DNA from: Bactericera cockerelli
Taxonomy: Eukaryota > Arthropoda > Insecta > Hemiptera > Triozidae
NCBI GenBank assembly: GCA_024516035.1
Contig: CM044962.1
Span: forward strand, 9,443,595-9,507,594
Direction: 5' to 3'
DNA length: 64,000 nt
The stretch's first letter is position 1, and every line of letters begins with the position of its first letter. Positions 1-56,210 of the stretch are shown one piece after another. The notes under the pieces are model-generated. The model searched no databases and was not told where the DNA came from. It worked only from the letters and a program-made list of their open reading frames with translations. Made by a program: the position numbers and the translations under genes.

Positions 1-654
1 AGTGTTGTTACCTGAGAGTAGTGAGTGTTGTTACCTGAGAGTAGTGAGTGTTGTTACCTAAGAGTAGTGAGTGTTGTTACCTAAGAGTAGTGAGTGTTGT
101 TACCTAAGAGTAGTGAGTGTTGTTACCTGAGAGTAGTGGAGTGTTGTTACCTGAGAGTAGTGAGTGTTGTTACCTGAGAGTAGTGGAGTGTTGTTACCTG
201 AGAGTAGTGGAGTGTTGTTACCTGAGAGTAGTGAGTGTTGTTGTTACCTGAGAGTAGTGAGTGTTGTTACCTGAGAGTAGTGAGTGTTGTTACCTGAGAG
301 TAGTGAGTGTTGTTACCTGAGAGTAGTGGAGTGTTGTTACCTGAGAGTAGTGAGTGTTGTTACCTGAGAGTAGTGAGTGTTGTTACCTGAGAGTAGTGAG
401 TGTTGTTACCTAAGAGTAGTGAGTGTTGTTACCTAAGAGTAGTGAGTGTTGTTACCTAAGAGTAGTGAGTTGTGTTACCTAAGAGTAGTGAGTGTTGTTA
501 CCTGAGAGTAGTGGAGTGTTGTTACCTGAGAGTAGTGAGTGTTGTTACCTGAGAGTAGTGGAGTGTTGTTACCTGAGAGTAGTGGAGTGTTGTTACCTGA
601 GAGTAGTGAGTGTTGTTGTTACCTGAGAGTAGTGAGTGTTGTTACCTGAGAGTA
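1..654 (-). repeat. Minisatellite of UPF1 exon P tail plus donor, ~28 copies, open at left edge
   Basis: About 28 head-to-tail units of 23-25 bp. Read on the minus strand each is CACTACTCTCAG|GTAACAACACT, that is, the last bases of exon P followed by its donor GTAACA. Variants include TTAG|GTAAC and one-base length changes. The array begins before base 1. A retroposon (655-871) sits between it and the genuine exon end at 882. Confidence 0.95.
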
Positions 655-839
655 GTAAGGGTTGGGTGGAAGAGATTGCCACAGGCAATAACCCCGCCTT
701 TTAGGTAGGACATTATTGTTATTTTTTTTTTTTACTTATTTATTTTGTCATTTGTTGGTTTGTTTGTTTGTTTGTTTGTTTTTTTTTTCTCTCCTAATTT
801 TACACTGTTACCTGTACCTACTTTGTTCTCCTAATAAAG

Positions 840-871
<32 letters not shown>
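655..871 (+). mobile_element. Short retroposon, hairpin subfamily A, poly(A)-tailed
   Basis: Begins AAGGGTTGGGTGGAAGAG with the 5' hairpin (ATTGCCACAGGCAAT), has (GTTT)n, an AATAAA signal at about 833 and a 29-base A tail. It is inserted in the UPF1 exon P minisatellite; the same repeat sequence flanks both sides. Its body resembles the inverted copy at 9283-9457. Confidence 0.8.
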
Positions 872-881: not shown

Positions 882-1016
882 CTGAGAGTAGTGAGTGTTG
901 GAGTAGGGGGGACGATGGTCCAGATAGGCGGACTCTTGCGACAGCATGCCGTCCAGCTGCGACATCATGAGAGAGTCCTGACTCAGCTCGGCCTGCGACA
1001 AGCTGAAGCCTCCGCC
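882..1016 (-). CDS. UPF1: UPF1 exon P (C-terminal SQ cluster)
   Basis: Encodes [37 protein letters not shown] and YSNTHYSQ, equivalent to the C-terminal LSQPELSQDS region of UPF1 where SMG1 phosphorylates. Phase 0 both ways, donor CTCAG|GTAACA. UPF1 proteins end shortly after this point, so the last short exon should lie left of the window, beyond the minisatellite at 1-654. Confidence 0.92.
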
Positions 1017-2460
1017 CTGAAATTACAGCACAACGGCGTTAGTGAATATTTCCAAATAATAAAAAAAAAGACATGAAAAAAAAGAAGACAATAAATACTA
1101 TTTGCTGCAATCCACCACATACTGAAAAGTACATTGGATTGCAGTAACTATTAAATATTAAATGAAGGATATGTATGAATATTAAAATAAAATATAATAA
1201 AGTTATTGAAAAAAAAAAAAAAAAAAAAAAAAATGTGTGGCTGGCAATGTTTGGTAATGAGTACTAAAGTAACAAAGTATTGTTCTGAAAGATACCTCTT
1301 TGAAAAATAAAACTACGAGGAAACAATTAATTAAATGTTAAAAAAATATAATACCAAATTAAAATAAGGAGCTCTAAAAAAAAGTCTGGCTGGGGGACTA
1401 TAAACAGGGAGGAGACCAACAGTCTGGCTGGGGGACTATAAACAGGGAGTAGACCAGCATTGGCTTGGCTCTGGGGGCCCTTGTCAGTTATTAGCCTCCG
1501 TGTAAAGACAGTGGTAGCAGGCGTCAGTGAATGTGTGGCTGGCAATGTTTGCTAATGCCCAAGTAGACTTCTAAAGCAACTAAGTATTATTATTATTATT
1601 ATTGAACATGTTGGATCAAGTTTCATTTACAAATGACATAGAATATATACAATTATACATACATAGAAATTAAAATTAAGAAAACAAAACTTGATCAAGG
1701 GCGGTGCTAATGCCGACGGCATTCTCTTCCGCACCACCCTTTAGTGTATTGAAAGATACCTCTTAGAAAAATAAAATTACGAGGAAACAATGAATTGAGT
1801 GTTAAAAAAAATATAATACCAAAATTAATAAGGAGCCCTAAGAAAAAGTCTGGCTGGGGGACTATAAACAGGGAGTAGACCAGCAGTCTGGCTGGGGGAC
1901 TATAAACAGGGACTAGACCAGCACCCTGAGTAGTTGGCTTGGTTCTGGAGGCCTTTGTCAATTTATTATTAGCCTCCTTGTAAACAGTGGTAGAACGGGA
2001 GTAGACTATGTCTCCTGGCTGTTGTTCCCCTGAATGAGATGGCCCTGGCTTAGCTTGTTAGGACCGGTGGACCCTAGCTTCATTGTTAGGACCCGTGGAC
2101 CCTAGGTTAGGACCAATAACCTCAGAATCACACGCTACTCACCTGAGACATGACCTGGCTGTAGGGCTGCGTGATCTCCTGGCTGTTGTTCCCCTGACTC
2201 AGATGGCCCTGGCTCAGCTTGTTGGGGCCGCTGTGTCGCTGGTTGGGGCCCGTCTTGTTCCGGAACCGGCCGCCTGCGTTGTTGTTGGGCCCGGCCGGGC
2301 CGTGGTGTAGCCCGTTCCGCTGGCCCATCCCTGATGATGACAAATAAACGATGATAATAACTTGGGCGCAGTGACCATTTTTTTTTTCAACAATTACTTA
2401 TACTTTATTGTATTAATAATAAATGCCCGCAGCACGGGTGTATATTTACGAGCCGAGCTC

Positions 2461-2501
<41 letters not shown>

Positions 2502-5500
2502 CATCAACACTTGCTAGCTTTTTAGGGCTAGACAAGCAATTACAGATGCGAATATATTTATTGTGTGTTTATATGTACAATCATATAATATATAGGTATA
2601 CAATACATACTGATAGCTTAAAATTAAGGTGAATATAATAAAACATAACATAGAAGAAATAAACAATGTCTAATATTAATCTGGGTACTATCTAGTTGAT
2701 TCTATTTTGATTGCTGAATGATAATGAATTATACGGGTGGAATGTGCCTATCTATAGTAAACAATCTGCATATAGTAAACAATATTATCATGCTGTCAAT
2801 GTCTTAATCTGGTGAGTCAGATTACAGAGATATAGAGTTACTTATGTTTGATGTTCAAGCGTTGTTTATTTTTTTGTTGATTACTACTCGTATGGATAAA
2901 ACAGGTCTGGTTTGTTTTCGATGTTATTATAGACATTCATTGCAGCTATTATTGGAGATTTCAATAAATTTGGATGAACAGAGAATAGTGTGGTTGGGTC
3001 AGTACGGAGTCTTGGATTAGGGACCTTAATATCAATTTTGGATGTGAGATATATGCTATTAATTTTGTTTGTTAGTAAATTTTTGAGAAATTTAATTTGG
3101 TTGTCCCTAAATCTGGATTCAATAGAGTCAATGACTAGATGTTCAATCAGTAATTTGTAGCTTATGTTGGAGGGGTATTTAGGGTAAAAACCATTGACTT
3201 TTTGAAAAAGGTATCGTACGAAATTAGCTTGTACTTTTTCAAGTTTCATAATTTGGGTTTTTGTTTGTGGAGTCCATAGAGCAGAACAATATTCTAATTT
3301 CGAACGCACTATACTTTTGTATAAGAGTGTAATAGTGTCTATATCACTAATGGGGGTGCAGCATCTTATGACCATCCCTAGTCTCCGGTTGGCCGCACCT
3401 ATTGTTTTATCTATGTGTGCATCCCAGTTCAAATTTGAGCTAAATGTAACACCAAGATCTGTAAATGTTTCTACGTTTTGTAGGGGAGTTTTATTGACTT
3501 CATATGGATTCTGTATGGTGTTCTTTTTAGTGGTTAATGTCATTTTGAAGCATTTGTTGGGGTGAAAGTGTAGACCAACCGATGCAAGCCACTTTTGTGA
3601 GGAGTTTAAATCTTCCTGCAATAAAATACAGTCGTTATAAGATGTTATTTTCTTGTATATTTTTAAGTCGTCTGCGTATAATTGAAACTGAGAGTTTTTT
3701 ATGTGCTTTCTGATGTCATCAAATGTTAGAATAAATAAAAGGCTACTAAGTTTTGAACCTTGTCCTACTCCTGATGGTGGATAGAAGGGTTTGGAAACGT
3801 GGTTTTCGAACAAAACTTGATTTTTTCTCTGACATAGATAGCTCTTCATTAGTTGGACGAGAGGGGTAGAGAACCCTATTGATTGTAGTTTGTGTATTAT
3901 GGCTGCGTGTGAAATAGAGTCGAAACATTTAGATATATCGCTGTAAATTACATCAACTTGAGCTTTTTCAGATATGACACGAGCGACGTAGTCGCAGAAT
4001 TCAGTAAGGTTACTGAGTGTGGATTTTTGTTTTACGAAGCCGTGTTGATTGGGAGATACGTTACTGAAGATGAAATTTGAGATTTTATTGTACAGAGCAC
4101 ATTCATATATTTTTGCCAGTGTATTAAGGGTTGAAATGGGTCGGTGGTTGTTAATTTCCACATTATTACCTTTTTTGGGGATCGGTTTTATAATAGATTC
4201 TTTTAATTTGTCTGGATATACTGCTTCTCGTAATGATTGATTAATTAAGTTAGTAAGGGGGTTTAAAAGGGTATCTAAGCATTTTTTGAACAAAATTGGT
4301 GGTAATCCATCGGTACCAGGTGATTTTTTTACCGGTATTTCTTGAACAGCTTTTTTAATGTCGTCTTTTGTGAAGTATTCAATATGAAGGTGTGTGTTTG
4401 AGTATATTTGTTCCGGTGAGAGTGATGCTGTAGACTCTGGGTCTATTGTGTTATTGTTGTGTGATTTAAGAAAATGTTGTGCAAAGGTGTTGGCTATTAT
4501 TTTAGGATCGACTAAGTCTTTACCTTCATGTTGTACTGATTTCTTGTTAGAGAGAGCTTTCCTGTTTTTGTAGAATTTCCAAAATTGGGAACTATCTTTT
4601 TTTATGTTTTGGGACATTTTTTGTACATAGTTTTGGTAATTTATTTTAATTTGAGATTTACATAACTTACGCAGTTGCTTATATTTGTTCTGTTGATTTG
4701 TGGATTTATTTTTTTGTTTTCTTAGTCTCTCTTTACTTTTAAATTTCATTTTTGTGTCATGCGTCCACCATATAGGATATTTATATTTGGTGTGCGTGTT
4801 TTTGTACTTTGGATCGTGTTGTTCTAAAATTTCGAATATTTTCTGATAAAATTGGTCCAGATTTTGATTGCAATCTTTTGAATCCAGATTTATTACATCA
4901 GACCATTGTATTTTAGCTAACACGGTATTGATCAGGGTAAAATTAGCGTTCGTGAAATTAAATTTATTGTTTTCTCCTATATCTGTATTTTTTGAATTTG
5001 ATATATTATTTCTAGCATTTTGTAATTCTACATTAATTACTAAAGGTGGATGGTGTCTATCGGCTTTTACAAGGCCTTCATCAGCTTTTTCTATATTTAC
5101 ATTTGTTTTTTTCCTCCTAATTGAAAACTGTTTGGATATATTGGTTAGACATAGGTCAAGGGTACGTGAGTTGCTGTTCTTTATTTTATTGAATGACTCT
5201 AAATTTAGTGTGTTCATGAGTTTGTGAATTTCATAAACTTGCGTGTTACCATTAATACTGGTGTTATCATCAAATTCTGGTATATTGAAATCTCCTATTA
5301 TCATTATGTTTTTTCCCAAAAGATTGGTGTCGGAACAAATATTGCTGACAAAAGATTTAACTGTTTCATTACTAACAGGAGGTGGAAAATAACAAATGCA
5401 GAAAAGTAGTTCCTGACCATATATTTGACATTTGACCCACATGATCTCATTTTCGCGTGTGCAAATATTAAGATTTCTGAGGGGAGTTGCTTTATAATCT

Positions 5501-8500
5501 CGTTTACAGCTGAATAATAAACCCCCACCTCGTTTTTTACAGGTTGAGGGATCTCTGTCTTGACGATAGATATCATATCGCTTATTGTCAAAGAGTTCAT
5601 TATTCCCTATGTCTTCAGATAACCAAGTTTCTGTTATTATAATAATGTCATAATCCTCACTGTAAGTGTTGTAAAAGAAGTTGGCGTGTTTTCGCTTTAT
5701 GCTATTGGCATTTTGATAAAATATACGAATTGCTTTTGTTGTTGAGATCATGGGAGTGTCATGTTGTCTAGAGTCTAAACTTATGTCTAAACTTAAATCT
5801 AAATTTTCTGAGAAGTGGTTCTCAAAGTCATTCTGGGGTTCTAGAGCCGTTTCATTAATAACTTTGTCTGGGGAAGCCAAAAATATGACTTACTTCATTG
5901 TTGGGTTGAATACCTGAGGGTTGCGTATAGTAATTATTATTATAACAAACAGAACTATTTACAAACAGAAAACAAATAACATCAATATATCACATAAGAA
6001 AGCTTTAAAAACAATCGTATCACAGTTATAAAAAGAAAAGAAAAATCAAGTAAAGTTAAAATCAGCACTGACATTTGTATTGAAGAGCGCCGTCACCGAG
6101 TTCCTTCCCATCGACCTTTTTTTTTACCGACTTCCTTCCTGGTCATGGTTTCGACGTTACCGACTTGCTTCCCATTGAGTTCCTCCCCGATAACGACTTG
6201 CTTCCCGTTTACCTGGTCTAAAAGAAGGTCTAAACAAGAAGATTTAGAAGAGAAATGGTTCTTTTTCTTTCTTCAAATTCCCATAGTCATTCACAGCCTG
6301 GTGTACCTCGTTCAGGGTTTGAGGAAGCTTTGGTAATGCACGGGTCCTAGCGTCAGACATATTTAATTTTTGCTTTATATAAAGAGCAAATAAACTCATT
6401 ACAATGAGATTACCTTGAGGGCCGGTGCCGCGGGGCCCAGGGGCGGGGGCGTTGTAGAAGCGGGGGGCGGGCCCATCTGATGGGGTGGCAAGTTCATGAG
6501 CATGCCCATGGGCACCGGGAGACTGGCGAGGGGCGGGCCCGTGCGCTCCGGGGCGATGTACCCGATGGGGTCGTGCCGGTTGAACATTTCCAACCCTGGG
6601 GGAGTAGGAAGAGAGATTAATAGTATTAGTATTAAGTATATTTATTGAACGGGAATAACCCTATACATATAAGAATACAAACATCGGAAACATGAAATGG
6701 TAACACTTATGAAAATAGTATAAAAAAAAATACAAGTACAAGTTAAAATATCACAGTAAATATGCAAAAAATAACCTGTCACAATAAAAAATAAATAAAT
6801 AAAACAAAACATGAAATATACCGTCGATATAAGAGAAACCTCGATATTAGAGGTCAAACTTAGCTCTGTATGACTATAAGGGAAAAGAACCTCTTTATAA
6901 GAGAAACCTCGATATTAGAGGTCAAACTTAGCTCTGTATGACTATAAGGGAAAAGAACCTGTTTATAAGAGAAACCTCGATATTAGAGGTCAAACTTAGC
7001 TCTGTATGACTATAGGGGAAAAGAACCTCTTAAGATAAGAGAAACCTAGATATTAGAGGTCAAACTTAGCTCTGTATGACTATAAGGGAAAAGAACCTCT
7101 TTATAAGAGAAACCTCGATATTAGAGGTCAAACTTAGCTCTGTATGACTATAAGGGAAAAGAACCTGTTTATAAGAGAAACCTCGATATTAGAGGTCAAA
7201 CTTAGCTCTGTATGACTATAAGGGAAAAGAACCTCTTTATAAGAGAAACCTCGATATTAGAGGTCAAACTTAGCTCTGTATGACTATAAGGGAAAAGAAC
7301 CTGTTTATAAGAGAAACCTCGATATTAGAGGTCAAACTTAGCTCTGTATGACTATAAGGGAAAAGAATCTCTTAAGATAAGAGAAACCTCGATATTAGAG
7401 GTCAAATTTACCTCTGTATGACTATAAAGGAAAAAAACATCTTTCTAAGAAACACCTGGATATAAGAGAAAAAAAATTCTGGTCCCTTGAGTTCTCTTAT
7501 ATCCAGGTTTGACTGTATTATAGATAATTTCAATGGAAAAGTAGTGTCTTGCAAGAGAACTATAAACAGAGAACACACTGAACAAACCTAACGAGCCCAT
7601 CTTGCTTGCATTTCTTCAACATTTAATATTAATCCTAGGATCACCGATGTCAAGCAACTTCCAGCGAGGTCAAGACTTCGTGATGCTGGCATTCCGGCCC
7701 AACCCAGACTGCGTGAGGTTAATATGGGTAGCAGGTTTGTGAGTTTCTTGTAAATGGAGGGTAACAGCCCCGTCGTGATATAACCATTCAGTCGAAAGCG
7801 GCGTTTAAACCCAAATTAAAAGAAAATGTATATCCGAACACTAAACCAAAATGTTTGAGTCTTGCTTCAAAAGTGTAAAAATTAAAAAAAAAAAAAAAAA
7901 AAACATTTAAATTTTAACCAAAATGGCCCCTACATGACCCCGAGGACCCTAATGGACCAGATTTGGCCCCAAAAACAGTAGGTAAAATTTGGGACCCGTT
8001 CTCTCATAAGGCGAGGAGGACCCTAATGGACCAGTTTTGACCCAAAAAAAAGTACGTAAAATTTGGGACCCGTTCTCTCATAAGGCGAGGAGGACCCTAA
8101 TGGACCAGTTTTGACCCAAAAAAGTACGTAAAATTTGGGACCCGTTCTCTCATAAGGCGAGGAGGACCCTAATGGACCAGTTTTGACCCAAAAAAAAGTA
8201 CGTAAAATTTGGGACCCGTTCTCTCATAAGGCGAGGAGCACCCTAATGGACCAGATTTGGCCCAAAAAACAAAAAATTGGTAAAATTTGGGCCCCGTTCA
8301 CTCACCCGGCCTCGTGGGGTAGTAGTGGGGGCCCGAGCTCATGTTGGAGCCTCCGCTGCGGTCGTAGACACTGCCGGGGATGATGGCCTCGCGCGCGTCG
8401 AACACAGAGGTGCTCATGAAGTGGGACCCGGGGTTGTTCGCGTTGAGGAGCTGCTTCGGCTTGGAGAAGAGGATGAGGGACTCCTTCAGGTTGTTGAGGG

Positions 8501-9593
8501 GACCCTCGACCAGGACCTTCTGTTCCTTGTAGAAGTTGAGCAGGTTGTTCCAGAGGGGTTGCTGAGGAGAATAGAATAGAATAGAAAAGAATGGAATAGA
8601 ATAGAATAGAATAGAAAAGAATGGAATAGAATAGAATAGGTTGAGGAGCTGCTTCGGCTTGGAGAAGAGGATGAGGGACTCCTTCAGATTGTTGAGGGGA
8701 CCCTCGACCAGGACTTTCTGTTCCTTGTAGAAGTTGAGCAGGTTGTTCCAGAGGGGTTGCTGAGGACAATAGAATAGAGTAGAATAGAATAGAAGAAGAG
8801 AATGAGGGACTCCTTCAGATTGTTGAGGGGACCCTCGACCAGGACTTTCTGTTCCTTGTAGAAGTTGAGCAGGTTGTTCCAGAGGGGTTGCTGAGGACAA
8901 TAGAATAGAGTAGAATAGAATAGAAGAAGAGGATGAGGGACTCCTTCAGATTGTTGAGGGGACCCTCGACCAGGACTTTCTGTTCCTTGTAGAAGTTGAG
9001 CAGGTTGTTCCAGAGGGGTTGCTGAGGACAATAGAATAGAGTAGAATAGAATAGAAGAAGAGAATGAGGGACTCCTTCAGATTGTTGAGGGGACCCTCGA
9101 CCAGGACTTTCTGTTCCTTGTAGAAGTTGAGCAGGTTGTTCCAGAGGGGTTGCTGAGGACAATGATAATAATTTCAGACTTATAAACTGTGCTGCCATTG
9201 GTTTGAGTTTTTTCAATTAAATGTGGAAAAAGGAACTAATAACTATAATAATTATCCGGAAAAAACATAGATACGTAATTTACTATTATTATTATAGTAT
9301 GCTTTATTAGGAGGACAGAGTACAATGGTAACAGTGTAAAATTAAGAAAAAAAAACAAACAAAAGACAAAATAAATAAGTAAAAAAGAAAATAACAATAA
9401 TGTCCTACCTAAAGAGCGGGGTTATTGCCTGTGGCAATCTCTTCCACCCAACCCTTCTTTTTTATCTTACTAATTATCCATACTCCCCTCCCCGTCTTCT
9501 TCACAATTTTTAACTTTGAAGACGGGTACCTTCCTATTATTTTTTTATTGTAATAATTTATCTTTGTCAAATAAATGGAAATGTTGTTAAAAG

Positions 9594-9628
<35 letters not shown>

Positions 9629-12600
9629 AGCAACAATTAAAAAGAAGTCACCGTGGCCGCGCTAGGCATTGCACGCACGGTGACTTGTTTTAATAGAAAA
9701 CTAGTGTGGAGAGAAAGAGTCTGAACTAGAGAAACACATTAAAATCATTTTCAGTTGAAAATGAAAAAACAAAAATCGCCCTTAGAAACTTAAAAAAAAA
9801 TCAAATTCAACTCCTATTTTGTAGTTAAATTTTTCTAAGATTTTTTTGTATCTCAAATTTTCAACGTACCTACCTACATGGGAAAACAGATAATTCCGCG
9901 AAAACAGATAAGGGCGGATAATTCGGCGGATGAGTGCATGTCAAGCTAGATTGCCATAGGCAATAACCCCGCCCTTTAGTTAGGACATTATGTTTTTATA
10001 TATTTTCTATTCTTTTTCATTTTTATTGTATATATTTTTTCCATTTTTTTCATTGTTAAAATAATTATTTGTATGTATAGAATGAATAAAGTGTTCTAAA
10101 ATAATAATAATATGGTTTGGTACATAAAAACTGTATGAGCGGTCTAAAAGAATGTGGTCTGTCTAATGCTAACTATTTATTAGAAGAAGCACAAAAATCT
10201 ATATTAATATCGACTACCTCCATCATAAGAAAATGCCTCGGCATACAATGAGTCCTGTAAGTCAATATATCATGAGAAAAATAACATAAAAAGAAGTATA
10301 TGTCTTGTCTCCCCTGCACCTCCACCACCTCTTCCTCCTCACTATCTCACTATGTCGCAACTAATAACTCACCTTGGACAGCACCTTGGGGTTGCAAGTG
10401 TATATCAAGCTGGACTCACCTTGGACAGCACCTTGGGGTTGCAAGTGTATATCAAGCTGGACTCACCTTGGGGTTGCAAGTGTATATCAAGCTGGACTCA
10501 CCTTGGGGTTGCAAGTGTATATCAAGCTGGACTCACCTTGGACAGAACCTTGGGGTTGCAAGTGTATATCAAGCTGGACTCACCTTGGACAGCACCTTGG
10601 GGTTGCAAGTGTATGTCAAGCTGGACTCACCTTGGACAGCACCTTGGGGTTGCAAGTGTATATCAAGCTGGACTCACCTTGGACAGAACCTTGGGGTTGC
10701 AAGTGTATATCAAGCTGGACTCACCTTGGACAGCACCTTGGGGTTGGTTGCAAGTGTATATCGAGCTGGACAGCACCTTGGGGTTGCAAGTGTATGTCAA
10801 GCTGGACTCACCTTGGACAGCACCTTGGGGTTGGTTGCAAGTGTATATCAAGCTGGACAGCACCTTGGGGTTGCAAGTGTATGTCAAGCTGGACTCACCT
10901 TGGGGTTGCAAGTGTATATCAAGCTGGACTCACCTTGGACAGCACCTTGGGGTTGCAAGTGTATATCAAGCTGGACAGCACCTTGGGGTTGCAAGTGTAT
11001 ATCAAGCTGGACTCACCTTGGGGTTGCAAGTGTATATCAAGCTGGACAGCACCTTGGGGTTGCAAGTGTATGTCAAGCTGGACTCACCTTGGACAGCACC
11101 TTGGGGTTGCAAGTGTATATCAAGCTGGACTCACCTTGGACAGCACCTTGGGGTTGCAAGTGTATGTCAAGCTGGACTCACCTTGGACAGCACCTTGGGG
11201 TTGCAAGTGTATATCAAGCTGGACTCACCTTGGACAGCACCTTGGGGTTGCAAGTGTATATCAAGCTGGACAGCACCTTGGGGTTGCAAGTGTATATCAA
11301 GCTGGACTCACCTTGGGGTTGCAAGTGTATATCAAGCTGGACAGCACCTTGGGGTTGCAAGTGTATGTCAAGCTGGACTCACCTTGGACAGCACCTTGGG
11401 GTTGCAAGTGTATATCAAGCTGGACTCACCTTGGACAGCACCTTGGGGTAGCAAGTGTATATCAAGCTGGACTCACCTTGGACAGCACCTTGGGGTTGCC
11501 GATGACGATGATGCCGTACTTGGCTCGGGTCAGGGCCACGTTGAGGCGACGCGGGTCATTGAGGAACCCGATGCCCTGGTGATCGTTGGACCTCACACAG
11601 GACATGATGATCAGGTCCTTCTCCCGGCCCTGGAACGCGTCCACACTCGCCACCTCGATCTCCTGGTAGATCTTGGCCGGCAGCGAGCCCTGGTACTGCA
11701 TGTGCTGCACCTGGGAGGGACAAGAATAGAATAGAATAGAATAGAATAGAATAGAATAGAATAGGACTAGAATAGAATAGAATAAGAATAGAATAGAATA
11801 GAATAGAATAGAATAGAATAGAATAGGACTAGAATAGAATAGAATAAGAATAGAATAGAATAGAATGGAATAGAATAGAATAGAATAGAATAGAATTAGA
11901 ATAGAACAGAATAGAATAGAATAGAATACAATTAGAATAGAATAGAATAGGACTAGAATAGAATAGAATAGAATAAAATAGAATAGGAAAGAATTGGAAT
12001 AGAATAGAATAGGACTAGAATAGAATAGAATAAAATAGAATCTTGTCGGGCAGCGAGCCCTGGTACTGCATGTGCTGCGCCTGCGAGAGAAGGAGAGGGA
12101 CAAGTGTGTCAGTATAAGGGTTGGGTGGAAGAGATTCCCATAGGCAATAATGCCGCCCTTTAGTTTTTTTTAACAAGATATGTGCTTTATTTTTGTACAT
12201 CATTTTATTACAATATTTTGAATAACAATAACATAATAAATATATAAGTATTTAAAATGAATCAAATAAAATAATTATGAGTATGCACTTATACTATCAC
12301 ACTAAGGTACCTGGGGAACCAGGCACCTTGTTTTGCGATAGTTAGGACATATGTTTTTATATATTTTTCTATTCTTTTTAATTTTTATTGTATATATTGT
12401 TTCCATTTTTTTCATTGTTAAAATAATTATTTGTATTGTACATTTGTCCATTTATATCTAATAAAGTGTTGAAAATAATAATAATATAAGTAGTACTTTA
12501 TTTAGACTGTCAGCTCAAAACAGGTATTCCCATTGTGCCAACAGTTTCCTATACCTCAGCTTTATTACAAAATATTGAGCAGAGTTTGCCTCGATATTTA

Positions 12601-15600
12601 CTCCCAAGTATTTACAACTTTCAGCATAGGCTAAGTATTTACACTGACATGGATTTTTGTAGAGTTCGTTTTTTCTGGTAGAATGATTAAAAATGGATGG
12701 TTTATTTTATTTTAAAACATACAATTTATAAAATGTAAAATATATTTCCTCCATGCTAGAGGAATAGGGCATTGTGCCCATCACACATGCGGCATTGCTT
12801 TTTTGGATTGCTATCGATATTCGTTGTCGTAAAAACTCATGACTTCTTTTCATTTTGCCTAAATTTGCCAATTGGCGGCGGATTTTGACTTTAAATCTTC
12901 GGGCGATAAGTTTTGTGATGTTTACAGTGTGAACTTCACACCAGTTCATTCTGTTTTTGGCGGTTTGTCAATTCCTTCTATTTCATACCAACTCTCCAAT
13001 TGCAATATTTGAAGCCAGAAAAGTATGCTTCGATTTCCCCGGTTTCAATTATTCACCTAACCGTTGAGTCATCTGATAGGTTCGGTGACCCTCTAATAGG
13101 TGTAGAAGTAGTGTTTATCTTGTAAGTAGAAGTCGAAAGACTTTCTTTTTCAAGTTAGAGTTTAAAGTCACTTTCAACTGCATGATCATATCACAGTCAA
13201 AAGACTGGTTTAGTCATATCACAGTCAAAAGATTTGTTAAGTCATATCACAGTCAAAAGATTTGTTAAGTCATATCACAGTGAAAAGACTTTTTAAGTCA
13301 TATTTGTTAAGTCATATCACAGTCAAGAGACTGGTTAAGTCATATCACAGTCAAAAGACTTCGGAAGTTTGCATAACCTTAGCAGATATTATTAAGAAAT
13401 ATTTTTGTTGTACAAATAAGAAGGACCATATTATTAAAAAAAAAGATGAGTGTTTCACAGCCGATTTTATTTTTATATCGTAGCCATGAAGTAGGAGCTA
13501 CTGTAGACGCTTGTGGTATGTGTTGTAGCCCGCCCATCCTGTAGTATGCGGTATGCCTCCCTTCTGATGGGCGAGAAGTGACACAATACTTCCCATTAAG
13601 GTGCTGGGTCAACACGAGCGCACCGGATGATATCGCTTACAAACAACTGTAACCAAATTTTGAATACAAATTTTTGTCGGCGCTGGGGTTCGAACCCGGA
13701 CCTTTAGCATGGCAAGCGCGTGCTTAACCACTGAGCTTAACCCCAATTCAATTCAGTTCAACTTGTGAGGTCATTACAAAGGAAAGCTCACCAGGAAGGC
13801 GCGCTGTCCCTCGTACGGCGTGATGACGCCGATCTGCTCCGGCTTGAGTCCGCACCGGATGAACCGCGTCGCGATCTTCTCCACGTTTGCGGCCTCGGTG
13901 CGGTTCACGTACGAGGTGCCCGAGCCCGCAATCTCCTCCTGGCCCTGGGTCACGTAGAACAGCATGGGCTTCTCGGGCACCGGCCACGGGAAGTCGATCT
14001 TGGAGAGCTTGCGCTCGTCTGGGGGGGGGGAGGTGGATTTTTTTTTTTAAACATAATTTCAACACTATATTTATAATTCAAACTAGCGGGCCGACGCATG
14101 GCCGTGAAAGCAAAAAATCATTTTTCGCCAATGGCAGGTGTTGTAGTGGGAATTTCGAAAAATCCCGTCTTATTACACATGTAGACTATAAGACAAAGCT
14201 ACCTACCAAATTTCAGCTCGCTAGGTATTACGGTTTGGGCTGTAGAGCGATGATCAGTCAGTGACTTTGACATTTATATATTAAGATTAATTATAATATA
14301 GCAATAACTGAAAAGTTTAAAAGATATTTAAAAGATATCAGGTTTTGTATCTAAATTATTGAAGTGATTCATTGCTGCATAAATGGGTGATTTCAGATAA
14401 TGATTGTTTCGAAAGTTTGGCAGAGCAAAGAAAGTGGATGAATTGGGACGCAGTCCTGGGATGGGTACTTTTATGTTAATGTTAGATACTAGATCATCAG
14501 TTCATAATGATATACCTTGATGAATAACTTGATGTCTCGTAATCTCGTAAAATAATTTCTGTCTCGGAAACTTCTATGTTTTACCAAATAAATAAACTGT
14601 TGTAATTATCCGTGAATTTTTTGCCTGTGACCAAAAAAATTGTATTTTTGTTTATATATGTGGTAACTAAAATCAATTTATTGTTTTGGTGCTCCGTTAA
14701 CGCAATTTCTTTAAAAAAATTAAAAATAAATTATTTTGTCAAGTTCCATTTTTATTACCTTATCTGACATATATGTGTGTAATGTGTACGTATTCATAGT
14801 ACCTATTGAGTTTGTGTGTTCCGCGGCTCTTGAACATTGTGTACTCATTAAAGAGTTACCTACTCGTGTTTCTCTTCTTGTTGTTTAATATTATTTCAAC
14901 TTAACGTGTTTTTGACTGTTTTGTGTTACCGTTGACCACATATAATGGAGATTCGTGTTAAATTTTTGGATAACATTTCAATCTTAACTAATGATAACTA
15001 TATCTTTAACTTTGTCAAATCTCGCCGTGCTGTGACTGTCAATAATGTTTTATAAATGTTCCGATAGTAAATGTACGAGTAAAATTACTTTAAATCCTGA
15101 CAAAACTAAGATTTTATCAGCTGACTTGCAACATAATCATATCGCTCCCCCAAAATCAGCAACTAAAAGTAATACTAAAAATAATGGAACTCCTGTTCAA
15201 AAGAGTAAAGATAGTGCAACAAATCAACCCGTTAAGAAATCTCAAACTAAACCAAGTACATCTAAAAGTGTTACTCTTGTCGATAAAAATCCCTCATCTA
15301 CTGTCGCTAATTCATCTCATGATAGCACCTTCTCATCTGCCGCCCCTCAATCTTCAACTAGTCAAAATAATAAACATATTAATAAAGTCAATAATACTTC
15401 TAAGAGTAACAGTGATGATATAACATTGCACAATGCTTCTACCTTTTCTCCTAATTCTCATTCATTGAAAAATGTCACTCCATCAAACTTGCGAAATAAT
15501 AACTCTAACTTAAAATGTAAATCTATCAAGAGAATTTTTATCTTTTCCGACAGTCATGGTAGAGACCTTTCCGCCGTATTAAGGAACAACTATGTTCATC

Positions 15601-18600
15601 CTGAGTGTCATGTGTCATCTTTGTTAAAACCAAATGCTCGGTTTGCTGATGTCGTGGGTTCGATTCCTGATATGTGCAAGGATGCGGACAAAAATGATAT
15701 TATTTTGGAACTAACAATTTATCAAGTCCCAATCTTGAAGCTGAACTTAGCCTCGGATGTCTGGTGCCCCTCGCCTCTAAAACCAATATCATTGTGTGCA
15801 GTATTCCCTTCCGGTTTGATGATCCTCAGTTATCTACAGGTCTAACTCGTGCAAATTTGTTTCTCAAAAATACATCCACTAATCAAGTTGGCAAATTTCT
15901 TGAATGCAATACTTTTCTACATCGCTCCTGTTTCACACGACATGGCTTGCATATGAACAGACGAGGCAAGCGTATCTTTGCTTTGAAATGTGCTTTTTTC
16001 ATTGATGAGCACTTCTGCAATGCACCTGCTATTATTCACTCTGGAGGAAGTATTGTCAATCAAGGTGAAGTCCAATTACTTGATGAATCTACATTTGTCA
16101 TCCATAGCCGAGCTGACGTCAATAATGCCCCTAGTGGCAGTACAAGTTCAAGATCTCTACAACTTGAACAATCATTGTTCACTTTTACTCCCCAAAATGA
16201 TTCCAGTGCTGGTCTGAAAGAATGTGAGGGGTATCATACCCCATACTCTACACCTTATGTTCAAAATCCAATTTCCAAAATAAGTGTTGCCATAGGAAAC
16301 AGACCCGAACGTGATGAATCAAATTTCCAAAGAACTTCTTCAACCCCCATAATTTGATTACATTAACAAACCAACAATCTGCTCAATACAAAAAAACAAT
16401 TTCACTTCATGTTTATTATCAAAATGTTAGAGGAATCAGAAATAAGCTCAAAGATTTAAGATGTAATATTCCCTTAATTGATTACGATGTAATTGTTTTC
16501 ACCGAAACATGGTTGTTAGACTCGATTCACGATGATGAGCTGGGATTCCGTGACTACTTTATTTTCCGTTGCGATAGAGATTATGACAATTCTAACACAA
16601 GCCGTGGTGGCGGTGTGTTGGTTGCTGTAAGAAAAAAATTCGCATCTCAGATCATCATTAAGAGTTGTGGTTTGTTTGAAGCCATATTTGTTTTAATTCG
16701 TTTTAAAAATTGTTATATCATTATCAGTGCTGTATACTTTCCTCCTGATTCCTCTAGGTCTGCCTACTCTAACTTTGCTGAGATTGCTGATGATGTGTTC
16801 AATCAATATCCCGATTCTAATGTATCTATTCTAGGTGATTTTAACTTCCCTTTCTTAAATTGGGACAACTTTCGTGATCTCACTAGATCGAACCTATTAA
16901 ATTCCAATGAGACCTCAGATGTAGTAATCGAATTTATAGAATTTCATGGACTCTATCAGATTAATAATGTGAAAAATCATATGGGCAGATTGTTGGATCT
17001 AATATTATTAAATTTCACCGTCTTGTCTGTGCAGAAATGTGACGACCCCCTACTCCCTGTTGATGCCTACCATCCGCCACTGTTATTTGTAGCGAGTTTC
17101 AATATTTCTAATAAGATTGATTTGTCTGATAATAATAGTGTTAGTGAACAACTTTGCTAAAGAAAACAAACTTTACTCAGCTAAGAGAACATCTAAACTC
17201 TATTGATTGGAATATTCTCTTTGAAGCAAATGTACCTTATAATGAACAAATTAAATACTTCTATGATGTAATTAACTCTTCCATTAAAAATTTCGTTCCT
17301 GTAGTAAAGTTTGGTAATTTTAAATTCCCAAAATGGTTCAGTAGCGATCTCAGGGACAAAACCCTGGCTAAAAAAGAAAAACATAAGCAATTCAAACGAT
17401 GCCCATCCGTCATCAATTATGAGCAGTTCTCCAATTTGAGGAGGGAATGTAAAGCTTTGAGTGATTCTGATTATAGCAGGTTTGTTTCTGAGGTTGAAGC
17501 TAGTTTACAGCAGAATCCTAAGCGGTTCTTTGGCTTCCTTAATGATTTGAAGGGTAGTAATAAAAAAAATAGAAATAACAATGCACCTCAATGTTTAACT
17601 TTGGACAACATCACTGCTACGGATTCTGAGGGAAGTGCAGGACTTTTGGCGACACACTTTTCATCTGTGTACTCAAATGAAACTATTGTGCCGCCTGAGT
17701 TTAACTTTCCTCAGTGTACCGATGGTTTGTCTCTTGTTCAGATTTCTCCTAATGAGGTTTTCAAGAAATTGTCATCTCTTCTTAAGTCGTCTTCTGCCGG
17801 ACCAGACGGTGTACCACCTATATTACTGAGAGAGTGTGCTGTTGAGCTGTGTCGTCCTCTGTGTTCATTATTTAACCAATCGCTATCAAATGGACGATTT
17901 CCCGATACATGGAAAAATTCTTTTGTTTTGCCTCTTTTTAAATCTGGTTCTAAAACAGACGTCAAGAACTATAGGCCAATTGCCAAAATATCATGTATCC
18001 CCAAAGTATTTGAGTCACTCGTCCTTGACAAAATTGGTAAACCTTTATCGAGTGTCATAGTCAGCAATCAACATGGCTTCATCAAAGGTCGTTCAACCTT
18101 GACAAATTTAACAACTTTCTATGAATATCTAACGTCTGTAATTGAAGATGGTGGCCAAGTTGATTGCTGTTACACCGATTTTAGTAAAGCTTTCGACAAA
18201 GTGAATATTAATATTCTTTGTGCAAAGCTCCATGCTTTGGGTATAAATGATCCTCTCCTATCCTGGTTCTACTCCTATCTTACTGGTAGAACCCAGACCA
18301 TTAGATATAATGGATCCCATTCTGAACCCATCTCTGTTAATTCGGGTTGTCCGCAAGGGGGGCATTTGTCTGGGTTAATCTTCAACATATTCATAAATGA
18401 CCTGATAAGTAGAATACCAGGAAATTTAGGACTTCTATTTGCTGATGACTTTCGACTTGCAAAACGTATTGACAGCACAGAGGATGGTGCTGCTCTGCAG
18501 CATGCTCTCTCACTTCTTTCTGATTGGTGTGGCGATAACCGAATGATATTGAATGTTAAGAAATGTCAGATGATTACTTTCACTCGTAAAAGGCGACCTC

Positions 18601-21600
18601 TTGTGATTCAGTACTCCTTGGATGGCGAACCTTTGTCTCGTATCTACAATGTAAGAGACCTTGGTGTTGTGCTGGATGCTAATCTTAAGTTCAACACACA
18701 CTATTACAACATTAAAAACAAAGCCATGAAAACTATGGGTTTCATCCAGCGCAACTCCAGAGATTTCAAATCTTCCAGTACTCTCAAAGCTTTATATTGT
18801 TCAATTATTCGTCCATCTGTGGAGTATTGTTCATCACTATGGTCTCCTTTTTGTCGTGAGCACATTGATCTTCTCGATAGTGTTCAACGAAAATTTTTGA
18901 GGTTGCTGGCATACAATGAAAGAATTAGGATTGTTAACCATGACTATTCTGAAATTGTAAATGCTAGTGGTCTCAAAAGTCTGAAACATAGACGAGATGT
19001 TGCTGATGTGATCTTTCTGTTTAAAATCATTAATAATTTTATTGATTGTCCCGACCTTGTTTCTCTAATCAATTTAAAAGTAAAAAACAAACAAACTAGG
19101 AATAATGATTTATTTGCAATTAAAACATTCAAAACCAACATTGGCAAAAATTGCACTATAAACAGAATAATGCAGCTTGGTAATATTGTTAACAATCCTC
19201 CATTCAATATTGACTTATTTAATGATACTTTAAACTCATTAAAATCAAAACTTATTGATTTCCAATCGCCGCACCAATAGTGTTCTGATCGCTTATGCTT
19301 AGTTTTAATAATTATTTTTAAGTTTTTTCTTTATTTTTAAGTTATTTTACTATATTATGTTTAAGTATTTTATTTGTTTTGTGTAGGGAAATTTATGTAT
19401 CATGGGTAGCACCCGTCTATTAATTAAATAAATAAATAAATAAATAAATAGATATGGGCTGTCTTTTTCATTATTAAGTATTTTTTCATTAAGATTTATC
19501 AGGGTCTTGTTAAATCTTGTGTTTACTGAGTCAATGGGAAGATTTTCTAGTAATTAGAATAAACAATATTTTTCTTTACCCTAATTTTTTAAAAGATATC
19601 ATAGTCGTGTTAATCACTTTTGTGACATCACAACTACTCAAACTCGCTTTACTAAATCTATGCTGAAACCAAAACTTGAATCACCCACCTCCAGGTTACA
19701 AGTCCGCCGCCTTATCGATCCTTATTGACTTCAAACTATTTCATCAATTTATTTTTTCTAATTTTTTTACTTAAACAATATTGTACATTACTATGTCCTC
19801 CTAATAAAGGTTACAAGTCCCCCGCCTTATCGATCAAGCTACTAAGGTATGTTTTTTCTTTACCTCGTCCAATAGAACCCAATATTATTAATCTCCCATC
19901 ATCATGGCTATGGATCACTATAAAAAAAATAGGTAAAAAAACCTGATCTTAGTGCAATAGATATAAAACTTAATCAAGGGTAGTGCTAAAACGGAAGGTA
20001 ACTTCGCACGGTGGTTACCTTCCACTAGAGTATTATTATGTGTAGGTAAGCCTAAATAAAGCTATAAACCTTTGTTTGTAAATAAAGCTATAAACAAACA
20101 TTTCCATCTAAAAAAAAGGTAAGCCTAGTGCCTACTTTGGTCTTCTCCTCCCACTTTGCCTTTTCCCAAATCTACTTGTGGTCGACATTGTTCAACCTCA
20201 TAGTTGACGTTGGTTGGTTGTGGCACATTTTTAGTAAAAACAGAAGAAAAAAAAACACTGTCCAATATCACTGGGGACTATAAACAAGTCTGGCTGGGGG
20301 ACTATAAACAGGGAGTAGACCAGTAGTCTGCCTGGGGGACTATAAACAGGGAGTAGACCAGCCCGACTCTAAACAGGGAGTAGACCAGCATTGGTTTGGT
20401 TCTGGGGGCCCTTGTCAATTATTAGCCTCCTTGTAAAAGACAGTGGTAGAAGTGCTGAGTCATTCCTTCACTGTCTGGCTACCATCGTTCACGATGACGC
20501 CACCCTATGATGATGATATCACTCACCCGCGCAGACCCCATTCTGCAGAGACCCCTCGTAGAAGAAGTTGGACGGGAACTTGCTGAGCTCGGGATGCATC
20601 CTGTACTGCACCTCCAGGCGGAAGGGCCGAATCCCGAGCACCACCAGCCGCTCAATTATGGACACAATACTTCCTCGTGATTGTATCACATTGTAAACAC
20701 GTGCCAATTTTGAGAATTTATACAAAATCAGTTGTATCTCCAAAACGACTGAACCGATTTTCTTCAAATTTGTTTTATATGATAGAATATTGTTTTTTCT
20801 ACATTCTAGATTCTGCAAAAAAATCTGTATCGGCAAGTCGTGTACCTTATTTTTTTACTTTTTTACAAGGAATCGTTTTTACAAGGAGACACTCACCAGC
20901 GCAAACCCCGTTCTGCAGGGACCCCTCGTAGAAGAAGTTGGACGGGAACTTGCTGAGCTCGGGATGCATCCTGTACTGCACCTCTAGGCGGAAGGGCCGA
21001 ATCCCGAGCACCACCAGCCGCTCAATGATGGACACAATACTTCCTCGTGATTGTATCACATTGTAAACACGTGCCAATTTTGAGAATTTATACCACAAAA
21101 TTACTTGTATCTCCAAAACGACTGAACCGATTTTCTTCAAATTTGTTTTATATGGTAGAATATTGTTTTTTTCTACATTCTAGATTCTACAGAAAAATCT
21201 GTATCGGCAAGTCGTGGACCTTATTTTTTTACTTTTTTACAAGGAATCGTTTTTTACAAGATTTGCGCGTTACAAGGAATCGTTTTGACAGACCGACAGA
21301 CGGACACAAAACCAAATTCGCTCAGGAGGTTATGAAACGTCCAGAAATATGAAAAAAATTGAAATCGGGACAAAAAAAATATTTTTTTTTTTTTTACAAA
21401 AACGAACACAAAATACTTCCGATTTCTAATATTGGAAATTTTTCGGAAGTAAAAAAAAGTTGTCCAATATCACTCACCGGCGCAGACACCATTCTGCAGA
21501 GACCCCTACTCCCCATGTTAAACGGCGGGTGTCTTTAAAAGATTTTTCCCCTATCTCCCTCATAAAAAAAAAAAAATCACTCACCCGCGCAGACCCCATT

Positions 21601-24600
21601 CTGCAGAGACCCCTCGTAGAAGAAGTTTTGGACGGGAACTAGAAAACTTGCGGGTAAAAAAAAAAAACAGTCCAATATCACTCACCAGCGCAGACACCAT
21701 TCTGCAGGGACCCCTCGTAGAAGAAGTTGGACGGGAACTTGCTGAGCTCGGGATGCATCCTGTACTGCACCTCCAGGCGGAAGGGCCGAATCCCGAGCAC
21801 CACCAGCCGCTCGAAGAGGGACTGGGAGAGGCCGGCCCGGGCCGCCTTCTTGCACATCACCACCGGGCCCAGCTGACAGTGGTCGCCCACCAGGATGAGC
21901 TGCTTGGCTCCTGGGCAACACAAAAAGTTATCATACAACATGTGTTAATCAAATGTAGCAAAAATAGTGTTCTACCATATCAAACTCTCCTTAGAAGAAT
22001 TCCTTAGGGAGAGCCACAAAAAATTGTAAAGAAAAACTAAAATAAATATACATAATTACATTAAAAACAAACTTGAAGAAAATCGGTTCAGCGGTTTCGG
22101 AGATACAAGAGATTTAGTATAAAAGCTCAAAATTAGCACGTGTATAATATCTGAAATAATCACGAGGTCCAAGTATTGTGTCCATAATTGCCAGTGTTTT
22201 CTACCCAAGTTAAATTTCGAAGGAAAAAAATGACCGAAAACAATAGTTGTTATAAGTTATTATATTTGTGTTAATCACTTTCGTGATGTCACAACTACTC
22301 AAACTCGCTTTACTAAATTTACGCTGTAACCGGGACTTCAACCACCGACCCCCAGGTTACAAGTCCGCCGCCTTATCAAGATTAGCTACTGAGGTCGGTC
22401 ACCTGGGCAACACATTCATGATAATAATAATATTGCCTTATTCATACTGCCAGATTAGGACAGCGGATTCAAAATACCGGAGGAGTAGCCCCTGATTGAT
22501 GCCTTTGTGTTTAGCCAGTAGTCAAGTGGTTAGCGTGCTGGTCTGGTAATCCAGGTAGCGTCGAATCCCACCCACTGCATGAATTTTTCCTCATTATTTT
22601 GAGTTTGTGACCACATAATAAGACTCTGTGGGATTGTTAGATGGTAGAAATTGCTTTGAGCACTAACCTCGCCTGGTGGTTGGTTACTTTCCACTAAAGA
22701 GTATTATTATTACAAATCTGATGTTGGAGAAAAAAAAAATCAAGAGGGTGGTAATAACATTATTGACTCATTTATTTACACTGTTCAATCAAGACGAATG
22801 AAATTTTGTTCCAAAACCTGGATTCACAAAACCACGAGTAACAATTGGTAGAAACCTGACTGCAAAACTAATGTGAATAAAACCGAGGTTTCACGTAAAA
22901 CCTCTGTTTTGTCATAAAATTGATAGAACCGGCCACTCTTGTATTCAACGGGGACAACGTACCATCGACGCTGGATGGTCAAATCTGTTGAGTTGCAACC
23001 AAATAAAATTTAACCATGTCATTAATCAAATTTAGAACCACATTATTAGCACCATTATATTTGTCACTTTCAACACGAAACTTTTGTAACAATTCAACAC
23101 GTACGCAAACATTTGACAACACCCTCACTGAAAATATACCACAACTTTCACCGTCACGACAGTACAAAAGGCGAACCCAGTACACACGTCAACCGAGTAG
23201 AAACACAGCATGGAAGGCCTGTTCACGTATAAGAGTGACCACAACCGGGTGTACGCAAGCGATAAGAGCCGCCACAACATCAGAAGTAAAAGCGTCAGAA
23301 ATCCACGCGAGGCAAGCAAAAGAACTCACGACGCTAGGAGCAGGACACGGCAGGATCAGATTGTGGCCCGCGGGTCCCTAGGTGACAGGAGATCAGGACG
23401 TCATTCACCCGAAGCAGAACCTAACGAGAAGTCTGACGAGTATGCAAACAGTGAGGCGTCCTCCGAGTCTGAGTCCAAGAGCAAAGGCCGAAAGAAAATA
23501 CATATAAATTTTAAGAAAAAAAATAAACACCAGCAGGAGAATGACTCAGAGAATTCGGAAGCAGATCCGGAACAGGAGTCGTCAGAAAAAGATCGACCCA
23601 AGCGGAAATTTCGATTCCGATCCAAGCATCGAGAGGAGTCGGATGACGTTGACAACGATGACAACTCAGAGAAATCCGAGCATGAGAAAGATCGATCCAA
23701 GAGGAAATTTCGATTCCGATCCAAGCATCGAGAAGAGTCGGATGACGCCGAAAACGATGAAAACTCAGAGAAATCCGAGCATGACAAAGAGCGGGAAAGA
23801 AGATCTTTCCTCCGGAGAAGACATCGGGATGAGTCGGACGAAGAGAGAGCGGAGCGCGAGGAACGCGAACAACGAAAAAGAGAGAAGCAGCGGGCGAAGA
23901 GCCGGCGGAGAGCGAAGAGTCGCGAGTTGAAGGAGAAGAAGAGGAACGAGAAGAAGCTGAAGAAAGCGGAGAGCGAGTCGTCGTTTGCGGCGCATCCTCT
24001 TGTCATACAGACGCACAGCGAGTTGCTAAAGATAGCCGAGTGCTATGAGCGGAGGCGTGCCGAGAGACTGAAACAGGACCCTGACGAGTACCTGTTCTGT
24101 TTGAAAGCACACAAATGCAACACTCAAGCCGAGGTAAAGAATTATCTTAATATAATAATAATGCTTTTTCTTTGTGTTATTATGTCACAATTTTAGTGGG
24201 TAGCGCAGAATCATAGGACTTTACCACTTTAATTTACAATATCTTGTATTTTTTTTTGCCTATGATTCTGCCACTGGTCGCTTAATATCTATAGAACACA
24301 CCCTTATAATTACAACACCTTTGCACCAAAAATTGCACCTTTTACTGTGATAAATGCAATTTGACACATTCATTAGCTGAGCTCACATTGCTTAATATGG
24401 TGTCATTCAAAATTCATACACTAAATTCTAAGCATGTATGGTACATAGTGCTTAATAATTCATAAAATTTCTAGGCATGTATGGTACATATTCCTTAATA
24501 TGGTGTCATTCAAAATTCAAACACTAAATTATAAGCATGTATGGTACATATTGCTTAATATGGTGTCATTCAAAATTCATACATTAAATTCTAAACATGT

Positions 24601-29251: not shown

Positions 29252-29289
<38 letters not shown>

Positions 29290-52493: not shown

Positions 52494-52602
52494 TTTTTGG
52501 TCCTTCGGGCCGGATCATTCACTTTTGGTCCTACGAGCCACATCATTCAATTTTGCACCTTCAAGACACGATCAAGTGCCTTCAAGATAAGTTTCAATCA
52601 AC

Positions 52603-55937: not shown

Positions 55938-56198
55938 AGCCAGCGTCAATGGCATGTTGAATACACCGGTTCCCTTCAGAACACCGAAGTTAAGCGACAT
56001 CCAGCGAGGTTAAGACTTGGATGGGTGACCATTCAAATTCTAATTCTCGTGACGCTGGCTTTTCCCGGCCCCACTCAGGCTGGGTGAGGTCAATGTGAGT
56101 AGCAGGTTTGTGAGTTTCCTGCGAATGGAGGGTAAAACCCCCGTCGTGATATGACCATGGCAGTTGAAAGCGACGTTAAACCCCACTTAAAAAAAAAA
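55938..56198 (+). mobile_element. 5S-rRNA-derived SINE (SINE3-like) in the BEL/Pao pol gene
   Basis: The head matches 5S rRNA: CACCGAAGTTAAGCGACATC and AGACTTGGATGGGTGACC, the internal Pol III control regions. The body is shared with the tRNA-headed SINE (CTCAGGCTGGGTGAGGTCAA..GCGAATGGAGGGTAAAACC), ending GACGTTAAACCCCACTT and poly(A). A 12-bp duplication AAAATATTTTAT flanks it (55926-55937, 56199-56210). Confidence 0.93.
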
Positions 56199-56210
56199 AA
56201 AATATTTTAT

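What the first reader, a model, noticed from the sequence alone, without database searches (positions are those of the whole stretch)
882..21910. Exon-edge copying affects at least five UPF1 exons: a locus-wide phenomenon
Exons J (4 donor-side copies), L (donor-side array and an acceptor-side copy), M (4 acceptor-side copies), O (internal copy) and P (donor-side array) all have partial duplicates in adjacent introns, in the same orientation. Nearly all include a functional-looking splice site. The exons left of 22000 are affected and those right of 28800 are not. Because UPF1 itself destroys mis-spliced mRNA, noise from these sites could feed back on UPF1 level (inference). A mechanism such as template slippage in repair near donors, or retro-integration of partly spliced transcripts, is open.
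Basis: partly seen in the sequence, partly recalled or inferred. Interest (0 to 1): 0.88.

Follow-up and report, generated by a model that had tools for sequence, protein, structure and literature searches.

The report
Repeated splice sites in psyllid UPF1
In a sap-sucking insect (a psyllid), short tandem duplications have copied the edges of several exons of the gene UPF1, splice sites included, into neighbouring introns; this resembles the "mirage" minisatellites of amphioxus, and the one apparently mRNA-derived protein record found shows normal splicing.

Summary
In a psyllid UPF1 gene (16 exons in the window, minus strand), exons J, L, M, O and P have partial copies in adjacent introns. 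The exon search gave 44 hits, all same-strand and within about 1.1 kb, 43 of 44 reaching the exon edge; reversed and shuffled exons gave none. So the border at 28800 is not real. Best reading: recurrent local tandem duplications, some expanded into minisatellites, like amphioxus "mirages". Carrying the splice site follows from geometry. A protein record inferred to come from spliced RNA (P0001) shows normal splicing at the 15 junctions in the window. Of 57 surplus intact sites, 56 would add a stop codon if used; in the two old families the sites are lost. Excess at exon edges is not shown: 7 of 31 boundaries versus 223 of 1000 intron segments; the per-family test depends on which families are counted. 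UPF1 feedback has no support here. The genome-wide test could not be run.

The parts
882..45958 (-). UPF1 (regulator of nonsense transcripts 1), coding exons A-P; the last coding exon (PY-stop) must lie left of the window
   Evidence: Exon model with 16 GT donors and 15 AG acceptors; agrees with P0001 except one residue and a frame shift in exon N; PDB UPF1 match of exon L, E 4.5e-39
1..664 (-). 23-nt donor-side array of exon P: last 18 nt of the exon + gtaac, repeated; reaches the window edge
   Evidence: TRF 28.3 copies, 95% matches; 28 surplus [CT]AG|GTAACA sites; unit composition read by eye
665..871 (+). SINE-like insertion with poly-A inside the exon P array, between the first and the remaining units
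   Evidence: read by eye
882..1016 (-). exon P
2011..2069 (-). internal copy of exon O (source 2175-2233), no splice site, 90%
   Evidence: E 1e-14
2143..2330 (-). exon O
7942..8304 (-). 74-nt array abutting the exon M donor; donor homologue decayed in the 4 copies aligned (ATGAGA for GTGAGT)
8306..8561 (-). exon M
8640..9170 (-). four acceptor-side copies of the exon M start, each with intact CAG acceptor (first exonic bases 8759, 8890, 9021, 9152); 131-nt unit with TTCTA-type sequence at the junctions
   Evidence: TRF, BLAST 97-98%, contexts and alignment
10367..11476 (-). 47-nt donor-side array of exon L with 35- and 36-nt variants; 20 surplus AAG|GTGAGT sites, 20-nt filler in the unit
11477..11710 (-). 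exon L
11722..12041 (.). (AGAAT)n microsatellite between exon L acceptor and its upstream copy
   Evidence: TRF
12040..12090 (-). acceptor-side copy of exon L start with intact CAG acceptor (first exonic base 12080)
20516..21640 (-). four donor-side copies of the exon J end, each with intact GTGAGT donor
21686..21910 (-). exon J
29826..29945 (-). old, decayed donor-side copy of exon H (source 30420-30550, 68%; best 56 nt 82%); donor lost
32187..32226 (-). 19-nt tandem duplication starting at +1 of the exon F donor, giving a second GTGATT

Best explanation
These are 'mirage'-type minisatellites: short tandem duplications that crossed (or abutted) exon-intron boundaries of UPF1, recurring at different times. 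Steps: (1) a segment running from inside an exon into the intron is duplicated in tandem, probably by error-prone break repair or template switching (inferred from filler or microsatellite sequence at several junctions). (2) The exon stays whole because one copy of the duplicated exon part remains joined to it, while the other copies fall into the intron with their splice site (geometry). (3) Some duplications expand by slippage or unequal exchange into arrays of up to about 29 units (arrays shown; mechanism inferred). (4) Normal splicing continues to use the exon-proximal site (shown for one apparently mRNA-derived protein). (5) Copies diverge and lose their splice sites (inferred from young versus old families). 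No function is needed.
For: 44 of 44 exon-copy hits are same-strand and within about 1.1 kb. The outermost copy of M (acceptor), L (acceptor) and L (donor) sits in ordinary intron context, while inner junctions carry TTCTA-type sequence or a 20-nt filler, as expected for tandem duplication with junction insertion. Identities to the exon differ: 100% (P hits), 97-98% (M acceptor), 95% (L acceptor), 93-96% (J), 90% (O), about 84% (M donor), 65-68% (H), so the process appears to recur. Splice sites are intact in the young families (57 surplus sites) but lost in the H copy and the 4 M-donor copies aligned. The same locus has tandem duplications away from exons: 223 of 1000 overlapping intron segments have a local direct copy. 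P0001 (1116 aa, longest contig 4594 nt) agrees with the 16 joined exons, one residue and the exon N frame shift apart, and continues with PY. Amphioxus precedent: PMC3087553 (abstract and passages), PMC3902484 (one passage).
Against: Counted per family, boundary involvement can look over-represented: 8 of 16 hand-kept families against 1.3-5.8 expected, P from <0.0001 to 0.15, and 5 of 11 young families against 0.6-3.0, P 0.0001 to 0.15. The 8 include M donor (abuts only) and O (copy has no boundary); counted strictly it is 6 of 16, P 0.0005 to 0.55. With 8 dropped rows restored it is 8 of 24 against 2.4-10.3, P 0.001 to 0.90, or strictly 6 of 24, P 0.02 to 0.99. A hotspot is not excluded. No template for the L filler was found in the window, so templated repair is not shown. 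No read-level check of the assembly was possible; the window has one residue change and one frame shift relative to P0001, so copy numbers are uncertain. That P0001 comes from RNA is inferred.
Confidence: 0.8

Rival explanations
1. Functional decoy arrays: the surplus splice sites are kept by selection so that a fraction of UPF1 mRNA is mis-spliced and destroyed by NMD, giving feedback on UPF1 level.
For: 56 of 57 surplus sites would bring an in-frame stop if used (20/20 L donors, 28/28 P donors, 4/4 J donors, 1/1 L acceptor, 3/4 M acceptors). A review describes autoregulation of splicing factors by splicing coupled to NMD (PMC11117581, passages).
Against: Intron sequence read in frame usually meets a stop soon, so 56/57 says little (not measured against a control). 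Splice sites are lost in the two old families. The apparently mRNA-derived protein shows normal splicing. No evidence of use was available.
Confidence: 0.05
2. Exon edges are true hotspots of tandem duplication in this genome, for instance through transcription- or splicing-coupled DNA breaks, beyond what selection filtering and detectability give.
For: Family-level test on 16 hand-kept families: 8 (strictly 6) against 1.3-5.8 expected; several independent boundaries in one gene, donor and acceptor.
Against: Segment-level test shows no excess: 7/31 boundaries versus 223/1000 intron segments. The family-level excess weakens or vanishes with strict counting, with the 8 dropped rows restored, and with detectability allowed for. 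The gene was picked because it looked striking.
Confidence: 0.1
3. Assembly artefact: the arrays are errors of the assembly.
For: Exon N is out of frame relative to P0001 and one residue differs, so the window holds base errors or polymorphism.
Against: Copies differ from each other by substitutions and indels, one array is split by a SINE-like insertion (read by eye), and identities range from 100% to 65%, which an assembler would hardly invent.
Confidence: 0.05
4. Retro-integration of partly spliced UPF1 transcripts into neighbouring introns.
Against: All 44 hits lie beside their own exon, same strand; none elsewhere in 64 kb. Boundary alignments carry intron sequence. Target-site duplications were not searched for.
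Confidence: 0.01

Closest known systems
'Mirage' minisatellites of amphioxus (globins BflGb6 and BflGb9, Adh3, TnC, PGBD5): PMC3087553 (abstract and passages), PMC3902484 (one passage)
   Same: Tandem duplications spanning 5' or 3' exon-intron boundaries; many but not all units carry AG/GT signals; normal mRNA splicing reported; proposed raw material for new introns
   Different: Here in an insect, with local copies at 7 of 31 boundaries of a single gene (M donor abuts only), up to 28 surplus sites in one array, and old decayed members; haplotype and somatic instability not tested
Drosophila novel introns from tandem duplication of coding sequence with a proto-splice site, PMC2891723 (abstract and passages)
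   Same: Tandem duplication in insect genes that copies AG/GT sites; that paper also cites many natural partial-exon duplications in D. melanogaster
   Different: There the duplication lies within coding exons and becomes a new intron; here it lies at existing boundaries and P0001 shows no new intron
Internal tandem repeats at exon-intron boundaries of human genes in segmental duplications, PMC2812944 (passages incl. abstract)
   Same: Tandem repeats at exon-intron boundaries that can affect splicing
   Different: Those are found by copy-number differences among paralogues and change gene structure; here no change of exon structure was seen
Tandem duplications with end-joining junctions in C. 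elegans helq-1 mutants, PMC8654963 (abstract and section 12)
   Same: Direct duplications with occasional insertions at the junction, as a mechanistic analogue
   Different: Those are about 100 bp-10 kb, in a mutant, with templated insertions; here units are often shorter and no template was found for the one filler searched

Membership tests
Mirage minisatellite (amphioxus sense) | Tandem repeat unit spans an exon-intron boundary | tested here: met
   P donor, L donor, M acceptor arrays; J copies. Not shown for the M-donor array, which abuts the exon, nor for O
Mirage minisatellite (amphioxus sense) | Both 5' and 3' boundaries can be affected | tested here: met
   Donor side: P, L, J, H (and M, abutting); acceptor side: L, M
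Mirage minisatellite (amphioxus sense) | Many but not all units carry AG/GT signals | tested here: met
   57 surplus intact sites; absent in the O, H and 4 aligned M-donor copies; in the L region 25 spacer motifs but 21 AAGGTGAGT sites, the real one included
Mirage minisatellite (amphioxus sense) | Normal splicing of the mRNA | tested here: met
   P0001 agrees with the 16 joined exons and adds PY; one protein record standing for 7 member sequences; reads not seen, RNA origin inferred
Mirage minisatellite (amphioxus sense) | Length instability between haplotypes or somatic cells | not testable with these tools
   One assembly only
Intron gain by tandem duplication of AG/GT sites (Rogers model, as cited in PMC3087553) | A new intron is created from the duplicated sites | tested here: not met
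   P0001, the one record compared, shows no new exon or intron

The most novel reading that the evidence does not exclude
Exon edges of expressed genes in psyllids are genuine, genome-wide hotspots of tandem duplication (mirages outside cephalochordates), constantly generating arrays of spare splice sites that feed intron gain and new alternative exons, such as the in-frame 66-codon extension available at the nearest exon M copy.
Probability: 0.1. Interest if true: 0.72.

Novelty: new member of a known kind. Interest (0 to 1): 0.38.

Why it matters
Mirage minisatellites were described in amphioxus and proposed as a source of new introns. Finding several families of different apparent age in one psyllid gene suggests that the process is not a cephalochordate oddity, and gives a series of birth, expansion and decay of spare splice sites. 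It also offers a natural test of how the splicing machinery ignores dozens of near-identical donors beside the correct one.

Tried and rejected
Retro-integration was rejected because all 44 hits are local and same-strand. 'Only left of 28800' was rejected after the H and F cases. A claim of enrichment at exon edges was dropped. The segment control shows none: 7/31 boundaries versus 223/1000 overlapping intron segments with dust on (246/1000 off); inverted-copy background 0/31 and 52/1000 (dust on), 1/31 and 81/1000 (off). That control counts every array unit, so it is generous to introns. The family test, first run on 16 hand-kept families, is fragile. The 8 rows left out at first (starts 19693, 23585, 24295, 25145, 30715, 32814, 42190, 43986) had been judged transposon-like, coding or weak by eye; I also split the 37070-38818 row into two and added two short TRF rows (32129, 32187). 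Of 25 rows, four lie outside the gene. On re-checking for this report I made the strict count and lowered the hotspot odds from 0.12 to 0.10. No template for the L-array filler was found, both strands, up to 4 mismatches, outside the array. An L-acceptor frame computed one base off was corrected. Nested-gene and transposon proteins were scanned for orientation only. Rfam gave one 5S match, unrelated. Literature: 9 searches, several with capped lists; no listed row described exon-edge minisatellite arrays in insects, though Drosophila intron gain by tandem duplication is known. The library holds open-licence papers only. The original Adh3 paper is not held and is known to me only through the two papers that cite it.

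Full report
What the window is. The minus strand carries UPF1 with 16 coding exons (A-P) inside the window; the model has 16 GT donors and 15 AG acceptors. Exon L alone matches UPF1 chains of the PDB (E 4.5e-39). The joined exons up to the middle of exon N were searched against the protein collection (2769 proteins passed the threshold, 120 listed). The best record, P0001, is listed at 100% identity, and the first record with an organism name is from Cyamophila willieti at 92% (Psyllidae), so the window is most likely from a psyllid. P0001 (1116 aa, longest contig 4594 nt, 7 member sequences) is inferred to come from spliced RNA, because the exons span 45 kb. Compared residue by residue, exons A-N agree except residue 628 up to residue 990; from there P0001 continues in the other frame of exon N and agrees without difference for 124 residues through exons O and P, then ends PY. 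So the window has a frame shift in exon N relative to P0001, near a C run at 6462-6467: base error or polymorphism.

The observation. Each exon was compared with the whole window on both strands. 44 hits were found at E up to 0.01: H 1, J 4, L 21, M 4, O 1, P 13; the other 10 exons gave none. All 44 are on the same strand and within about 1.1 kb of the source exon; 43 of 44 reach within 2 nt of the exon edge (O is the exception). Reversed exons gave 0 hits and 20 shuffled sets gave 0. The H hit is new: a donor-side copy at 29826-29945, 65-68% identical (82% over the best 56 nt), local score 44 against a maximum of 19 in 300 shuffles, and 30 against 18 for the exon part alone. Boundary-centred searches add an array abutting the exon M donor, and TRF shows a 19-nt duplication beginning at the first base of the intron after exon F. 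The statement that exons right of 28800 are unaffected does not hold; a left-right contrast remains at p = 0.03, or 0.10 with F counted.

Anatomy. P: 23-nt unit made of the last 18 exon bases and gtaac, interrupted by a SINE-like insertion (by eye; TRF). L donor: 47-nt unit made of 27 nt of exon end plus donor and a 20-nt filler, with 35- and 36-nt variants; its outermost copy runs into ordinary intron without the filler. M acceptor: 131-nt unit with TTCTA-type sequence at the junctions; the outermost copy has ordinary intron upstream. L acceptor: one copy separated from the exon by (AGAAT)n, with different intron sequence outside. J: four copies of 28-137 nt with the donor. The layout, outer copy in old intron context and inner junctions with filler, is what tandem duplication with insertion at the junction gives. 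A mechanistic analogue with duplications joined by polymerase-theta end joining is described in C. elegans (PMC8654963, abstract and section 12); that the same pathway acts here is inference, and no template was found for the L filler.

Why the splice site is nearly always included. A tandem duplication inside an exon alters the protein and is likely removed; one inside an intron is not seen as exon copying; one crossing the border puts exon sequence into the intron while leaving the exon whole. The presence of a splice site is therefore expected without any targeting (reasoning, not a test).

Is there an excess at exon edges? Per 80-nt segment, 7 of 31 boundaries have a local direct copy against 223 of 1000 overlapping intron segments (dust on; 246 of 1000 off); inverted copies, as background, 0 of 31 and 52 of 1000 (on), 1 of 31 and 81 of 1000 (off). 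So no excess, but this control counts each array unit in introns. Per family, 8 of 16 hand-kept families involve a boundary against 1.3-5.8 expected depending on assumed intron length and detectability, P from <0.0001 to 0.15; for 11 young families 5 against 0.6-3.0, P 0.0001 to 0.15. The 8 include M donor, which only abuts, and O, whose copy has no boundary; strictly 6 of 16, P 0.0005 to 0.55. With 8 dropped rows restored, 8 of 24 against 2.4-10.3, P 0.001 to 0.90; strictly 6 of 24, P 0.02 to 0.99. The gene was chosen because it looked striking. I conclude that no hotspot is shown, and none is excluded.

Consequence for splicing. Surplus sites with intact GT or AG: 20 (L donor), 28 (P donor), 4 (J donor), 4 (M acceptor), 1 (L acceptor), 57 in all; one further match at 812 lies in the SINE-like insertion and is not counted, nor is the second GTGATT at exon F. 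Use of 56 of 57 would bring an in-frame stop; the exception is the nearest M acceptor (8759), which would add 66 codons in frame. P0001 shows none of these. In the old H copy and the 4 aligned M-donor copies the donor is gone. Feedback on UPF1 through NMD is possible in principle but unsupported.

Comparison. The phenomenon has a name: 'mirages' in amphioxus globin genes and Adh3 (PMC3087553, abstract and passages), and PGBD5 and TnC (PMC3902484, one passage), with normal splicing reported and intron gain proposed. Boundary repeats also occur in human segmental duplications (PMC2812944, passages), and tandem duplication of coding sequence with proto-splice sites gives new introns in Drosophila (PMC2891723, abstract and passages). 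Nine literature searches, several with capped lists, showed no row describing exon-edge minisatellite arrays in insects (calls in Tried and rejected); the library is limited to open licences.

Verdict. Real, best explained as recurrent tandem duplication of exon edges, a new member of a known kind in a new lineage. The genome-wide scan that would decide the bold reading could not be run because the genome search did not answer in 13 tries.

Noticed in passing
6462-6467: Exon N is out of frame relative to the apparently mRNA-derived protein P0001 from about this C run on; base error or polymorphism. One residue also differs in exon I (A for P at residue 628).
   Followed up: yes
23213-24930: A charged, SR-like open reading frame on the + strand lies inside the UPF1 intron between exons I and J, with a 99-nt tandem repeat in the frame (23588-23790); its first part (23213-24133) has no Pfam match.
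   Followed up: partly
2887-5889 and about 14900-19280: Two retroelements in UPF1 introns; the first has a reverse transcriptase domain, the second was only read by eye.
   Followed up: partly
25872-28282: Possible DNA transposon with inverted ends (read by eye, not tested).
   Followed up: no
52591-57469: BEL/Pao-like element: DUF1759, aspartyl protease and integrase domains; the family name is recalled.
   Followed up: partly
55939-56060: 5S rRNA match (Rfam RF00001, 65 bits) inside the retroelement region; perhaps a 5S-derived SINE (guess).
   Followed up: no
62982-63975: 93-nt array, 10.7 copies, whose unit contains TTATAGGTTGAT; near the window edge, gene context unknown.
   Followed up: no
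8568-8639 and 11722-12041: The same AGAAT-type microsatellite lies just upstream of two UPF1 acceptors (M and L), each time between the exon and its copy.
   Followed up: partly
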